Source: Bolinopsis microptera (taxonomy: Eukaryota; Ctenophora; Tentaculata; Lobata; Bolinopsidae). From it: a stretch of 64,000 bases of DNA. The stretch spans positions 8,299,983 to 8,363,982 of the forward strand of contig NC_087077.1 in assembly GCF_026151205.1 (NCBI RefSeq), read 5' to 3'. Within the stretch, counting starts at the first letter, position 1; each line of letters begins with the position of its first letter. The notes under the pieces were generated by a model, which was given only the letters and a program-made list of their open reading frames with translations, was not told the origin of the DNA and searched no databases. Below, one piece after another: positions 5,101 through 14,037 of the stretch. The translations under genes were made by a program, and so were the position numbers.

Positions 5101-6098
5101 ATGATAAGGATGACCCACAGTGCCCTCCTGATTCTGATTCTGATAAGCGTGGTACAAACAACTGTTTGGGATTGTTATGATCAAAAATGTAAAGGAGAAG
5201 GTTTCTATAACGATACCTACATAGCTTGTGACCAAGAAATAGACATCTGTGGCTTCAGCTCTAATGGTTAGATCTATTAATATTTAATCCGAGGGAATAT
5301 TTGCATAGAAATATTAAGAAGCACGGTGTGAACGGGCCAGATCTCCAAATCTCCAAATCTCCAAATCTCTAAATCTCTAAATCTCTAAATCTCTAAAAGA
5401 ATCAACTCGATGAATTTGAATGTGTGTTTTTGTAATGCAAAGTTAATCCAACAAATTTTTCAGGCTACCCGACATGTAATTATAACAGTTATGGAGGTTA
5501 CGGTTGTGATTGTTATGGAAGTTACTACTGCAGCTCTGATAGCGTTACTGGAGATGCATACTGTAATTCTACTGGTGGCTACATCGGGGGAGGGGTATCT
5601 ACACTGGTTTTCTTCCTAATATTGTTCTGCTGCTGTTGCTATTGCTGTAAAAGACGGAGACGTGCAGCTGGCAACCAGCAGCAGACAGTTATAGTGCAGC
5701 AGACCACTGCTGCACCAGCCCCACAACCCACTGTTATTCAGAACATTAACGTCGTACAGCAACCTCAACCTCCACCTCAACCTTACTTTCCTCAGCAGCA
5801 GGGCTTTGCAAACCCTGGTTATCCAGCACAACCTCAACCTGGTTATCCTGCACAACCTCAGCCTGGATACCCAGCACAACCTCAACCTGGTTATCCTGCA
5901 CAACCTCAGCCTGGATATCCTGCACAACCTCAACCTGGATATCCAGCACAACCTCAACCTGGATATCCAGCACAACCTCAACCTGGATATCCAGCACAAC
6001 CTCAGCCTGGATATCCAGCACAACCTGGTTTTGCCCCTCAACCACAACCTGGAGACGCATCTGCCCCTCCTCCTTACAACCCAAACTATACTGAGTAA
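5101..6098 (+). CDS. Shisa-like Cys-rich single-pass membrane protein, copy 1
   Basis: Two exons, 5101-5266 and 5464-6098, with a phase 1 junction, encode about 266 residues; Met 5110 is an alternative start. A signal peptide ([12 protein letters not shown]) leads into WDCYDQKC and a Cys-rich ectodomain of nine cysteines. A TM helix follows ([12 protein letters not shown]), then CC and a basic stop-transfer KRRRR. The cytoplasmic tail is Gln/Pro-rich with nine tandem 8-residue GYPAQPQP units (24-nt period, 5817-6026) and ends in [16 protein letters not shown] is a WW-domain (NEDD4-type ligase) ligand. This architecture matches the Shisa/CYYR1/WBP1-VOPP1 group of transmembrane adaptors. Family membership is inferred from architecture, not from alignment. 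Unlike copies 2 and 3, it has no 36-37-residue insert after the intron. Confidence 0.82.
5337..5400 (+). repeat. 9-bp tandem array in intron of Shisa-like copy 1
   Basis: Seven or so tandem units of ATCTCCAAA drifting to ATCTCTAAA occupy the single intron of copy 1. The introns of copies 2 and 3 have no such array, so it arose or expanded after duplication. Confidence 0.8.
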
Positions 6099-7502
6099 TG
6101 AAACTTTTAAAACTAAACTGAGACTCTTTCGATCATATCATAATACACTTACTCCCCTGCTGGGGTAATTAATCTTAGGTATGATAAAGTGGGGCATTTT
6201 GTACAAGTTTTTATTCAGTTAAAATAATAATGATTGCTATGAATGTTAAATAATTCTATCATTCATGTGAAAAATGTGATTCACTTTTCGAAAGTTTTTC
6301 CCGATCCATGACTCTTATGCCGTCACACAAATAATTTAGTTCCTGTTTTTGTGCGGGGCTGAAATGGCCACGCAAATTGCTTAACTATCGCTCCCTGTCA
6401 GTTTAAATGTTTAATGGAAAATATAGTCTAGTAGCGGACATGAGTATATTTTGCATATATTTTTTGAAAAGTTACGAAATATATGGAATTAAATTCTAAA
6501 ATATCATAATTGATGCAGTCAATTGTAATTTGTAATCCATTGGTTGCAATGCAAGGTTGACTTGTTTAATTACGAATAACTTTATTAAAAAGTATTCGGG
6601 TTAATACTAATATCTCATGTTTTATTCCCGGACGGCTCCAGCTAAACTCACACTAATTTCACAAAGCATTTTCCACAATTTTCAGCACTTTAACTTTACA
6701 CCATTTAGTAGTACCAATAAGTACCTCCCTCATAAATTCATTCCTACAGACTTTCTAAGAAACAACCTTCACCTTCCACCATCCCAACACTATCAGAAAC
6801 AACAGCCAATCACATATCAGAAACACAAATCACGTGACACTCGATGCACCTTCCACAGCCGTGGCATCAACATGTGGCATCAACAAGTGGCACTATCATA
6901 TATGTAACATGCGACACTTGCGACACGCACATGTGTGCCACAGTGCCACATTTACGTGATAAGGTCGGCTCATAGTGACCATGGTTACGAAAGTTTGTTC
7001 ATATATTCTATAACATATAATTCTGTTAAAATATCCACCTTTAGGACTCTTAGTTATGTTACGTAATTTCGTTGCCATGCTCCCTCATCATAATATAACA
7101 GTAACTTCGTTACTAAGTATCCGTACCTCGTGCCTTGAACTTTTCCTTTCGCAACATCAAACTACATGTTCATTTGATGTGTGCTTACCTTGTGTACACC
7201 GTTGGTCAGTGGATTACTGAGGTGCCAAAATTGATAAATCTTGTCACCAATTATCACCTAATAGATCGTTCAGATTACGTAACGTTCAATTGAGGTCGAC
7301 CAGCCTCCACTCTTTAACCGTCACGTGACTGCAATCTCCAACTGTATTCATCAGCTCTTATTACCATGGCCTGGTAAGACGAGAAAGCCTGTTATATATA
7401 CATTATTTTCAGCCATCTCTTTGTTCCGTTGTTGTCGTAAAACCTTAGAGCGATCTTTAGGTTGTTCGAATATCCTAATACTAAGATACTAGTGATTTAA
7501 AG
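6099..7502. other. 3' UTR of copy 1 and spacer to copy 2
   Basis: The first ~170 bp after the stop (through about 6270) closely match the sequence after the copy 2 stop, including TGGGGTAATTAAT and a following AGTGGGGCATTTTGTACAA. They are therefore a duplicated 3' UTR. Around 6455-6600 there is looser similarity to 9060-9130. The segment 7135-7345 resembles 9400-9730, including a CACGTGACTG block, consistent with duplication units carrying their own 5' flanks. No coding exon seen. Confidence 0.6.
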
Positions 7503-8638
7503 ATGCTCATGATATTTCCATCTATTCTCCTGACACTTACATTGGTTGGAACGGTACGGACTTCGACTTGGGATTGTTATGATCAAAAGTGCGAGGGAGA
7601 AGGTTCCTTCAGCGGGACGTACATTGATTGTGACAATTCAAACAATATTTGCAGAACTGCTTGGTCTAGTAAGAATCTTTTTACTAATTTAAATATATCT
7701 ACAGTAAACCCCAATTTATCGTACAAATTGGGGAAGGGAAAATAGTATGGTAAATTGGGGTACGGCAAACTGTGATGTATCAAAAATTATTTTCCATTAA
7801 TCAGAATTTTCTATTTTCTGTTATATATAATATATAACATAATGCAAACCTCTTGTCCACAGATAATAATGATATATTCCACTTGGGACAATTAGATATA
7901 TCCAAACGCTTCTCGACAAATATTAATGATATTTTACTTGAGTCGGGATTATACGATTCATCATTTTCAGATTATCCGACGTGCGCGTACAGCTATTACG
8001 GAGGGGACGGTATCGACTGCAATGGCAACTACACCTGTAGTTACAATAGCACCTCTGGGAAGGCATACTGTAGCTCGACTTCTGTTACAACGGTTACAGT
8101 GAGTGGCTCTATAGGAGGTGTGGTGTCTTTCCTGATATTGGTAGGTTGCTGCTACTACTGCTGCAGGAGAAGGTCGAGGAGAAGGGAAATTGCTAATGTA
8201 AATCAGACTAATGTGGTAATTCAACAAACTGCTGCTGCACCAGCCCCGCAACCGATTATACAGAACATCAACGTCGTACAGCAATCTCAACAACCTCCAG
8301 CTCAGCCACAGTTCGCAAACCCTGGTTACCCACCACAACCTCAACCTGGTTACCCAGCACAACCTCAACCCAGCTATCCACCACAACCTCAACCTGGTTA
8401 TCCAGCACAACCTCAACCTGGTTACCCAGCACAACCTCAAACTGGTTATCCAGCACAACCTCAACCTGGTTATCCAGCACAACCTCAAACTGGTTATCCA
8501 GCACAACCTCAACCTGGTTACCCACCTCAACCCAGCTATCCACCACTCAGTTACCCAGCACAACCTCAACTTAGATATTCATCACAACCTGGAGACGCCT
8601 CTGCCCCTCCTCCTTACAACCCAAATTATACTGAGTAA
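7503..8638 (+). CDS. Shisa-like Cys-rich single-pass membrane protein, copy 2
   Basis: Exon 1 is 7503-7668 (166 nt, same length and phase as in copy 1) and exon 2 is 7863-8638, giving about 313 residues. The order is a signal peptide (LTLVGTVRT), [12 protein letters not shown], a Cys-rich ectodomain of eight cysteines, a TM helix ([14 protein letters not shown]), a basic RRRSRRR stop, a Gln/Pro-rich tail with [16 protein letters not shown] repeats, and terminal [12 protein letters not shown] with a PPPY motif. A second acceptor at 7969-7970 is in the same phase as the one at 7861-7862. It corresponds to the acceptor used in copy 1, so a 277-residue isoform lacking 36 residues is possible. The 3' UTR is shared with copy 1 and the intron with copy 3. 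Confidence 0.84.
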
Positions 8639-12792: not shown

Positions 12793-12849
12793 TATTATAT
12801 AATAAATATATTCATAATATCCTAATACTCTAATACTAGTGATTTAAAG

Positions 12850-14037
12850 ATGCCCATGATATTTCCATCGATTCTCCTGACATTTACATTGGTTGGAACG
12901 GTACAGACTTTGACTTGGGATTGTTATGATCAAAAGTGCGAGGGAGAAGGTTCCTTCAGCGGGACGTACGTTTATTGTAACAATTCAATCAATATTTGCA
13001 GCACTGCTTGGACTAGTAAGAATCTTTTTGCTTATTTGAATATATCTATGTAGTAAACCCCAATTTATTGTACAGTTTGGGGAAAGGAAAATAGTATGGT
13101 AAATGGGGGTAAGGCAAACTGTGATGTATCAAAAATTATTTTCCATTAATCAGAATTTTCTATTTTCAGTTATATATAATATATAACATAATGCAAACCT
13201 CTGATCTTGTCCACAGATAATTATGATATATTCCACTTGGGACAATTAGATATTATATCCAAACGCTTCTCGACAAATATTAATGATATTTTACTTGAGT
13301 CGAGATTATACGATTCATCATTTTCAGATTATCCGACGTGTGCGTACAGCTATCACGGAGGGGACGGTATCGACTGCTCTGGCAACTACACCTGTAGTTA
13401 CAGTAGCACCTCAGGGAAGGCATACTGTAGCTCTACTTCTCGTATATCCGCAGCAACTGGCTCTATTGGAGGAGGAGTAACGTCCTTGCTGATATTGGTA
13501 GGTTGCTGGTACTACTGCTGCAGGAGGAGGAGGAGGAGAATAAGGACTACTGCTAATGTAAATCAGACTAATGTGGTAATTCAACAAACTGCTGCTGCAC
13601 CAGCCCCGCAACCGATTATACAGAACATCAACGTCGTACAGCAATCTCAACAACCTCCAGCTCAGCCACAGTTCGCAAACCCTGGTTACCCACCACAACC
13701 CAGCTATCCACCACAACCTCAACCTGGTTATCCAGCACAACCTCAACCTAGATACCCACTACAACCTCAACCTGGTTACCCACCACAACCTCAACCTGGT
13801 TATCCAGCACAACCTCAGCCTGGATATCCTGCACAACCTCAGCCTGGATATCCTGCACAACCTCAACATGGCTATCCTGCACAACCTCAACCTGGTTATC
13901 CAGCACAACCTCAACATGGCTATCCTACTTCTCCTCGACCTGGCTACGCAGCACAACCTCAACCTGGTTTTTCTCCTCAACCACAACCTGTAAACGGGTC
14001 TGCTCCTCCTCCTTACAACCCCCACATAACTGGTTAG
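12850..14037 (+). CDS. Shisa-like Cys-rich single-pass membrane protein, copy 3
   Basis: Exon 1 is 12850-13015 (166 nt) and exon 2 is 13217-14037, giving about 328 residues. It has a signal peptide ([11 protein letters not shown]), [12 protein letters not shown], a Cys-rich ectodomain close to copy 2, a TM helix ([15 protein letters not shown]) followed by RRRRR, a Gln/Pro tail with a more degenerate GYPAQPQP array (including GYPAQPQH and GYPTSPRP units), and an ending [12 protein letters not shown] that keeps PPPY. The copy 2 intron is largely conserved here. An in-phase second acceptor at 13326-13327 would remove 37 residues. Promoter sequence is interrupted by MITE copy B. Confidence 0.84.

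What the first reader, a model, noticed from the sequence alone, without database searches (positions are those of the whole stretch)
5101..14037. Tandem cluster of Shisa-like PPPY membrane proteins with expanding GYPAQPQP tails
Three adjacent genes share signal peptide, 8-Cys ectodomain (WDCYDQKC...PTC...C), TM, a Gln/Pro octapeptide array of differing length and purity, and a terminal PPPY. Seen directly: copy 1 has nine near-perfect 24-nt units, copy 3 a decayed array. Known: Shisa/CYYR1/WBP1-VOPP1 adaptors bind WW-domain ubiquitin ligases through PPxY. Inference: a lineage-specific, rapidly evolving set of endosomal/trafficking adaptors, whose tyrosine-rich tail repeats could phase-separate or bind multivalently.
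Basis: partly seen in the sequence, partly recalled or inferred. Interest (0 to 1): 0.7.

Follow-up and report, generated by a model that had tools for sequence, protein, structure and literature searches.

The report
Chimeric membrane-adaptor gene trio, not Shisa
Three neighbouring genes encode small membrane proteins whose outer part is a cysteine-rich module without an entry in the main domain library and whose inner tail ends in a likely ubiquitin-ligase docking motif, and the middle gene looks like a hybrid of its two neighbours, joined within the repeated tail.

Summary
In detail: three two-exon genes (5101-6098, 7503-8638, 12850-14037) encode a signal peptide, a Cys-rich ectodomain (8 Cys; 9 in copy 1), a TM helix with a Cys cluster, a GYPAQPQP array and a terminal PPPY. 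Shisa membership is not supported. The ectodomain lacks the C*C*CC*CC signature, and Shisa-related profiles give only sub-threshold WBP-1 hits around the TM. It is one copy of an ~65-residue module; I count 33 at 16 loci of this genome, including proteins with 2, 7 and 11 tandem modules. No convincing Pfam match and no PDB match. PPxY occurs in 7 of 14 family tails examined, so a PPxY trafficking adaptor remains the best functional guess (inferred). The three tails have no lysine beyond the membrane-proximal stretch, which would suit an adaptor rather than a substrate. New result: copy 2 is a mosaic, copy-3-like in its 5' part and copy-1-like at its 3' end and flank, switching within the repeat region. 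The two intergenic stretches share ordered blocks, as expected from unequal crossing-over inside the coding minisatellite; unequal divergence means later gene conversion is also needed, or may be the whole cause. Host species, structure, expression and binding were not established.

The parts
5101..5266 (+). Copy 1 exon 1: signal peptide and first half of the Cys module ([10 protein letters not shown])
5267..5463 (+). Copy 1 intron (GT..AG), holding a CCAAATCT tandem repeat at 5337-5397
5464..6098 (+). Copy 1 exon 2: second half of Cys module, TM with Cys cluster, repeat tail, PPPY, stop
5814..6026 (+). Copy 1 24-nt coding array, 8.9 units, 92% matches; 8 contiguous GYPAQPQP units differ only synonymously
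7503..7668 (+). Copy 2 exon 1, copy-3-like (93% to copy 3, 58% to copy 1)
7863..7970 (+). Copy 2 open stretch before the preferred acceptor: intron end, or a 36-residue extension if the upstream acceptor is used
7971..8638 (+). Copy 2 exon 2 with stop; copy-3-like up to 8320, copy-1-like from about 8584
8321..8583 (+). Copy 2 repeat array (TRF 8321-8532) and the stretch after it: the interval that holds the switch from copy-3-like to copy-1-like sequence
8639..8836 (+). Copy 2 3' flank, 89% identical to copy 1 flank 6099-6293; similarity to the copy 3 flank not above chance (28 of 200 shuffles reach it)
12850..13015 (+). Copy 3 exon 1
13217..13327 (+). Copy 3 equivalent of the ambiguous 36/37-residue stretch
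13328..14037 (+). Copy 3 exon 2 with stop
13705..13990 (+). Copy 3 24-nt array, 11.9 units, 82% matches
6099..7502 (.). Intergenic 1, sharing six ordered blocks with intergenic 2
8639..12849 (.). Intergenic 2, sharing the six blocks with intergenic 1 and longer by insertions
10526..11299 (.). Element with terminal inverted repeats (774 bp) in intergenic 2
12022..12796 (.). Second copy of the element (775 bp), opposite orientation, 92% identical; lies between two of the shared blocks upstream of copy 3

Best explanation
The locus encodes three type I single-pass membrane proteins made of an 8-Cys module without a Pfam entry, a Cys-clustered TM segment and a disordered-looking Gln/Pro/Tyr tail ending in PPPY. 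Most likely each picks up a surface or endosomal partner through the module or TM and presents the PPPY to WW domains of a NEDD4-type ubiquitin ligase, so that the partner rather than the lysine-free tail is ubiquitinated and sorted; the GYPAQPQP array works as an adjustable, multivalent spacer. The 24-nt array is also a recombination site: unequal crossing-over between copies 1 and 3 within it made the hybrid middle gene, and later gene conversion kept parts of the genes alike. Shown: anatomy, gene family, mosaic structure, shared ordered intergenic blocks, absence of lysine. Inferred: WW binding, ubiquitination of a partner, spacer role, and crossing-over as the mechanism.
For: PPPY is kept in all three although copies 1 and 2/3 are saturated at silent sites from the module to the juxtamembrane part (dS 3.0 and 2.3, dN 0.36 and 0.38). 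PPxY occurs in 7 of 14 family tails examined. The tails of copies 2 and 3 have 0 lysines in 157 and 171 residues; copy 1 has one, next to the membrane. Eight contiguous units of copy 1 vary at 4 sites, all silent. Mosaic: three-way sites where copy 2 sides with copy 3, versus with copy 1, are 150:19 in the 5' coding part and 8:93 in the 3' part with flank (Fisher p 7e-43); using only the last 48 coding bases, 0:12 (p 8e-11). Sites are not independent. Intergenic 1 and 2 share six ordered blocks; leaving out the 3' flank next to the genes, 5 blocks, against a mean of 0.02 in 50 shuffles, 0 reversed, 0 reverse complement and 0 in 12 other window pieces. Precedent: CYYR1 binds WW domains of WWP1 and WWP2 through PPxY and co-localises with Rab7A late endosomes (PMC11399591, passages).
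Against: No expression, localisation or binding data. One PPxY per tail, whereas in CYYR1 pairwise deletion of its three PPxY drastically reduced binding. The WW-domain search of the genome did not complete. Lysine absence is partly a by-product of Gln/Pro-rich composition, and paralogue L011 has two tail lysines. Copies 2 and 3 show weak constraint (w 0.77). A single crossover does not fit the divergences: the four middle intergenic blocks are 66-79% identical but the copy 2-3 intron is 96%. Copies 1 and 3 share GF[AS]PQPQP after the array, which copy 2 lacks. The 8:93 count includes copy 3 flank that is barely alignable, so it overstates the signal. The silent-site test used units picked by a peptide pattern. 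In one search the copy 1-3 alignment runs on into the 3' flank to 14228, and 2 of 200 shuffles reach that flank score, so faint old homology there is possible.
Confidence: 0.5

Rival explanations
1. True members of the Shisa-like (STMC6) superfamily, with a very divergent ectodomain.
For: Same overall layout. Sub-threshold WBP-1 hits: copy 2 E 0.11 over TM and tail; L011 E 0.007 from profile position 1, starting inside the last part of the Cys module.
Against: C*C*CC*CC absent; eight Cys in another pattern; module also used in tandem 2, 7 and 11 times. 0 of 23 modules scanned alone hit a Shisa, CYYR1 or WBP-1 model at E up to 5. Proline- and Cys-rich TM segments draw such weak hits easily: L017, with no Cys module in the exon read, hits 32 families, WBP-1 and CYYR1 among them.
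Confidence: 0.1
2. The PPPY is a signal for the protein's own ubiquitination and turnover, or for Ca2+/ALG-2-linked sorting, not an adaptor device. The repeated PQPGY units resemble the PxPGF-type ALG-2 site that lies near a PPPY in SARAF.
For: SARAF carries PPPPGFK near PPPY, and ALG-2 binding there interferes with its ubiquitination; SHISA4 also bound ALG-2 (PMC7504102, abstract and passages). Copy 3 has PQPGF with 11 residues between it and PPPY, and the tails hold 8, 5 and 8 PxPG[YF] sites.
Against: The Phe is Tyr in all sites but one. A tail without lysine is a poor self-substrate, though ectodomain-independent or non-lysine ubiquitination is not excluded.
Confidence: 0.2
3. The tail is a condensation or cross-linking device (multivalent Tyr/Gln/Pro repeat), and the PPPY is incidental.
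For: 12-14 tyrosines per tail, regularly spaced in the arrays; octapeptide sequence apparently constrained in copy 1.
Against: PPPY is kept in all three and in two single-exon paralogues with a somewhat different repeat unit; no test of phase behaviour.
Confidence: 0.15
4. Copy 2 became a mosaic by gene conversion (5' half from copy 3, 3' end from copy 1) in a pre-existing triplet, not by unequal crossing-over.
For: The genes are far more alike than the intergenic DNA between them (copy 2-3 intron 96%, copy 1-2 3' flank 89%, middle intergenic blocks 66-79%). Possible faint copy 1-3 3' flank similarity (2 of 200 shuffles) would suit an older triplet.
Against: Does not by itself explain why intergenic 1 and 2 share ordered blocks while the region upstream of copy 1 shows none (61 and 88 of 200 shuffles reach the observed scores), unless that homology has decayed.
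Confidence: 0.3

Closest known systems
CYYR1 (STMC6 / Shisa-like superfamily)
   Same: Small type I protein, Cys-rich ectodomain, PPxY tail; CYYR1 recruits WWP1 at late endosomes (PMC11399591, passages)
   Different: CYYR1 has three PPxY motifs and is placed in a family most of whose members have C*C*CC*CC; here one PPxY, eight spaced Cys, a repeat tail, and a module also used in tandem
Commissureless / PRRG / yeast Rcr PY adaptors
   Same: Short single-pass proteins that redirect membrane proteins and carry PY motifs (PMC5578492, passages)
   Different: Comm lacks extracellular Cys; PRRG has a Gla domain (recalled). Another gene of this genome, L017, with PPAY and LPSYDEV, looks nearer to this class, but only by sub-threshold hits among 32 families
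WBP1 / VOPP1 family
   Same: TM followed by Cys and Pro-rich PY tail; weak profile hits (copy 2; L011)
   Different: All under Pfam's cut-off; modules scanned alone do not hit it
Cornifin/SPRR (Pfam PF02389)
   Same: Pro/Gln repeat composition; tail hits of E 3.7e-5, 0.0048 and 2.4e-6
   Different: Under the cut-off; probably a composition match; no membrane anatomy (recalled)
Lepore/anti-Lepore globin hybrids (recalled)
   Same: Order A - [B5'/A3'] - B as the reciprocal product of unequal crossing-over
   Different: Here the crossover interval would be a coding minisatellite, and the event is old and overlaid by conversion and insertions

Membership tests
Shisa-like / STMC6 superfamily | Six ectodomain Cys as C*C*CC*CC in the majority of members (PMC5578492, passages) | tested here: not met
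   Eight aligned Cys, no adjacent CC in the three genes; CC in 1 of the 20 family modules examined (L056)
Shisa-like / STMC6 superfamily | Match to the Shisa_N, CYYR1 or WBP-1 profile | tested here: not met
   0 of 23 modules alone; copies 1-3: only WBP-1 E 0.11 for copy 2; L011 WBP-1 E 0.007, 17.5 bits against a cut-off of 28.1, overlapping the module's last two Cys
Shisa-like / STMC6 superfamily | Signal peptide, single TM, cytoplasmic PY motif | tested here: met
   Hydrophobicity and motif scan; orientation inferred
Shisa-like / STMC6 superfamily | Fold of the Cys-rich domain | not tested
PPxY adaptors of NEDD4-type ligases (functional class) | PPxY on the presumed cytoplasmic side | tested here: met
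   One PPPY per protein
PPxY adaptors of NEDD4-type ligases (functional class) | Binding to WW domains and PPxY-dependent ubiquitination of a partner | not testable with these tools
   Needs bench work; even the WW-domain genome search did not complete
Genome-wide 8-Cys CYDxxC module family (defined here) | Eight conserved Cys plus GxG before the sixth | tested here: met
   Invariant in 23 aligned modules. Most of these were picked by a pattern that requires eight Cys, so Cys invariance is partly by choice; the genome matches themselves were found without it

The most novel reading that the evidence does not exclude
A family of type I receptors or adaptors built on an undescribed 8-Cys module (33 copies counted, 16 loci), in which different cytoplasmic tails are paired with the module, and in this locus a coding minisatellite both tunes tail length and acts as the crossover site that makes new ectodomain-tail combinations, yielding lysine-free ligase-recruiting adaptors.
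Probability: 0.35. Interest if true: 0.55.

Novelty: new variant of a known kind. Interest (0 to 1): 0.38.

Why it matters
It replaces a plausible but unsupported family label with a module family that Pfam does not hold, so the genes can be annotated by what they share. The hybrid middle gene is a good candidate case of a protein-coding minisatellite acting as a recombination site within a gene family, so that the repeat that varies tail length also exchanges tail ends between paralogues. The lysine-free PPPY tail makes a simple, testable prediction about adaptor versus substrate.

Tried and rejected
Rejected: Shisa/STMC6 membership (see Membership tests); on rechecking, the L011 WBP-1 hit was found to overlap the end of the module, and I raised that rival from 0.07 to 0.1 for it. 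Rejected as first choice: the upstream acceptor for copies 2 and 3 that I used at first. The acceptor homologous to copy 1's is preferred, but the 108/111-nt stretch is open in both copies, with an in-frame 3-nt indel and two substitutions, both non-synonymous, and is more alike than the rest of the intron, so it stays unresolved.

Led nowhere: PDB by sequence (no hit at E up to 10); relatives in viral and prokaryotic contigs (none confirmed by tblastn); text search for tail or ectodomain peptides (0 papers); GYPPQ-type repeats (15 of 17 papers seen as a listing, none opened); cnidarian/Nedd4/PPxY terms (1 paper, listing only); unequal crossing-over/minisatellite terms (10 of 14 papers seen as a listing, none opened); ectodomain tree, mostly unresolved (2 of 17 inner branches starred); GFP family as a hint to the host phylum (no hit, no control rang); tRNA/Rfam scan of the window (one weak tRNA hit). 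Genome searches with WBP-1 and Shisa_N found nothing, but no control rang, so they show nothing. CYYR1, Wnt and WW family searches of the genome did not complete. That the host is an animal is an inference from gene content.

Lead only: in 6 of 6 divergent members checked, an extra Cys two residues after the seventh comes with one two residues after the eighth, and in the 8-Cys members read I saw neither (by eye), which suggests that these two pair. I picked the six by eye and two of them (L085, L086) are weak matches, so this is not a statistical test.
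Full report
What is there. The window lies at G000:C6:8299983-8363982 of an unnamed 264.65-Mb genome in 232 contigs. Between 5101 and 14037 lie three genes on the + strand, each of two coding exons (5101-5266 + 5464-6098; 7503-7668 + 7971-8638; 12850-13015 + 13328-14037), giving open proteins of 266, 277 and 291 residues. Each has a hydrophobic N-terminus, a Cys-rich ectodomain, one TM segment running into a Cys cluster and an Arg-rich stop, a shared juxtamembrane stretch (QNINVVQQ), a GYPAQPQP array and a PPPY near the end. 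TRF reports 24-nt arrays of 8.9, 8.8 and 11.9 units with 92, 89 and 82% matches. A degenerate 23-nt unit pattern has 16 listed exact matches in the genome, all in these three genes, and none when read backwards.

What the ectodomain is. Genome searches with single proteins show that the ectodomain is one instance of an ~65-residue module, C-Y-x3-C-x-G..C-D..C..G-x-P-x-C..G-x-G-x2-C..C..G-x-A-x-C. By my count there are 33 modules at 16 loci with at least one match at E below 0.01, the three window genes counted as three loci. Two of the 16 (C8:1149370 and C5:4090594) have a stop inside a match and may be split by an intron or broken. Three weaker candidates (C4:13534153, C6:8368778, C3:1361112; best E 0.03-0.07) and other still weaker rows were not counted. 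Included are a two-module protein (C2:16993454) and proteins with 11 and 7 tandem modules (C7:7821976-7824378 and C7:7826955-7828496). I aligned 23 of the 28 modules then in hand, leaving out five near-duplicates; eight Cys and two Gly are invariant. Most of these modules had been picked by a pattern that requires eight Cys, so the Cys invariance is partly by choice. L011 and L013 on C5, paralogues with PPPY tails, run in one open frame straight from the fourth Cys to G-Y-P-x-C, which supports the acceptor chosen for copies 2 and 3. The 23 modules have no convincing Pfam match (four unrelated families, one member each, best E 0.013), and neither a three-module query nor the module profile has a PDB match at E up to 10.

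Shisa or not. Most Shisa-like proteins have six cysteines as C*C*CC*CC (PMC5578492, passages; the primary paper was not held). That pattern is absent here. Full-length copies 1-3 give only sub-threshold Pfam hits: Cornifin to the tail (E 3.7e-5, 0.0048, 2.4e-6), WBP-1 for copy 2 at TM and tail (E 0.11), and a few unrelated single-TM families. Against my reading, paralogue L011 hits WBP-1 at E 0.007 (17.5 bits, cut-off 28.1) from profile position 1 over residues 71-128, which include the last two Cys of the module. I take this as a TM/Cys/basic composition match, because the modules alone do not hit it (0 of 23), and because another gene, L017, whose read exon has a TM, CC, PPAY and LPSYDEV but no Cys module, reaches WBP-1 1.1e-4, CYYR1 2e-4 and Comm 2.6e-4 among 32 sub-threshold families, many of them unrelated TM proteins. 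Layout and PY motif are shared; membership fails on the tested signature.

The middle gene is a mosaic. From exon 1 to the start of the array copy 2 follows copy 3: 93% in exon 1, 96% in the intron, 88% in exon 2 up to 8320, against 58 and 67% to copy 1 in those exon parts, where silent sites between copies 1 and 2 are saturated. After the array copy 2 follows copy 1: the last residues [17 protein letters not shown] are identical in copies 1 and 2, and the 3' flank is 89% identical over 198 aligned positions (score 155 against a shuffle maximum of 19.5). Three-way sites: copy 2 sides with copy 3 at 150 and with copy 1 at 19 in the 5' coding part, and 8 versus 93 in the 3' part with flank (Fisher p 7e-43). 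As the copy 3 flank is barely alignable, the stricter count is the last 48 coding bases, 0 versus 12 (p 8e-11). Sites are not independent. The switch lies between 8321 and 8583, the array and the stretch after it. There copies 1 and 3 share a GF[AS]PQPQP segment that copy 2 lacks, which a clean single switch does not explain.

How the mosaic arose. Intergenic 1 and 2 share six blocks in the same order (89, 75, 66, 70, 79, 91% identity). Without the 3' flank next to the genes five remain, against 0.02 on average in 50 shuffles (maximum 1), 0 reversed, 0 reverse complement, and 0 in 12 other 4-kb pieces of the window. Upstream of copy 1 and downstream of copy 3 no separate hit was found. The upstream comparisons are at chance; for the downstream one, 2 of 200 shuffles reach the copy 1-3 score and 28 of 200 the copy 2-3 score, and the copy 1-3 gene alignment runs on into that flank, so faint old homology of copies 1 and 3 there is possible. 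The order copy 1, [copy 3 5' / copy 1 3'], copy 3 with a duplicated spacer is what the reciprocal product of unequal crossing-over between the arrays of copies 1 and 3 would look like. Against a single event, the middle blocks are far less alike (66-79%) than the copy 2-3 intron (96%), so gene conversion must have acted later or may have made the mosaic by itself. Two elements with inverted ends (774 and 775 bp, 92% identical, opposite orientation) lie in intergenic 2, one of them between two shared blocks; I take them for later insertions.

Constraint. From the module to NINVV, copies 1 and 2 or 3 have dN 0.36 and 0.38 with saturated dS; copies 2 and 3 differ by dN 0.12, dS 0.15 (w 0.77), with 24.7 of 34.7 replacements in the TM/juxtamembrane part. 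In copy 1 the eight contiguous canonical units vary at four sites, all silent (neutral chance about 0.004; units were picked by a peptide pattern, which biases the test); copies 2 and 3 hold both kinds of change.

How it may work. PPxY occurs in 7 of 14 family tails examined. One of the seven, L086, is a weak module match, and copies 1-3 are not independent; tails of L035, L053, L081, L085 and C3:1361112 were not counted. CYYR1 gives a worked precedent: PPxY-dependent recruitment of WWP1 at Rab7A late endosomes (PMC11399591, passages). The three tails have no lysine beyond one next to the membrane in copy 1, so a recruited ligase would have to modify something else: adaptor rather than substrate. 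This is inference; composition alone lowers the lysine count, and L011 has two tail lysines. The PQPG[YF] units resemble the type-2 ALG-2 site beside a PPPY in SARAF (PMC7504102, abstract and passages), a second testable option.

Verdict. I did not establish host species, expression, structure or any interaction. I do not claim that the module is undescribed outside Pfam, the PDB and the text search.

Noticed in passing
window 27215-28498 and 31700-32983 (-): Tandem pair of single-exon, GPCR-like multi-pass proteins, 418 of 428 residues and 1269 of 1284 nt identical; the one scanned (27215-28498) has no 7tm Pfam match. Calling them GPCR-like is my reading.
   Followed up: partly
window 10526-11299 and 12022-12796: Two copies of an element with terminal inverted repeats (ends CAGGGTGGGCCAAAAGTCAGTG, next to TA), opposite orientation, 92% identical; together they form a large inverted repeat.
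   Followed up: partly
window 22633-25902 (-): Open 1090-residue frame with endonuclease and reverse-transcriptase domains: looks like a LINE-type retrotransposon.
   Followed up: no
L022 (G000:C7:7819000-7828900): Two neighbouring genes with 11 and 7 tandem copies of the 8-Cys module and short tails; two modules of one of them are 96% identical, which points to recent internal duplication.
   Followed up: partly
L035 (around G000:C8:1149370): Module apparently split over two exons and ending in a hydrophobic stretch with no tail: possibly a GPI-anchored member.
   Followed up: no
L017 (around G000:C5:13602464-13602628, -): Separate TM/PPAY/LPSYDEV exon with sub-threshold WBP-1, CYYR1 and Comm hits among 32 families: perhaps a nearer candidate for the Comm/CYYR1 class than the cluster.
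   Followed up: partly
window 46113-47362: Long low-complexity stretch: GGACATTGGCGGACACGGAC repeats, then GAGGAG-rich sequence.
   Followed up: no
window 63416-63706 (+): Frame with a 2OG-Fe(II) oxygenase match (Pfam PF03171, E 2e-11).
   Followed up: no
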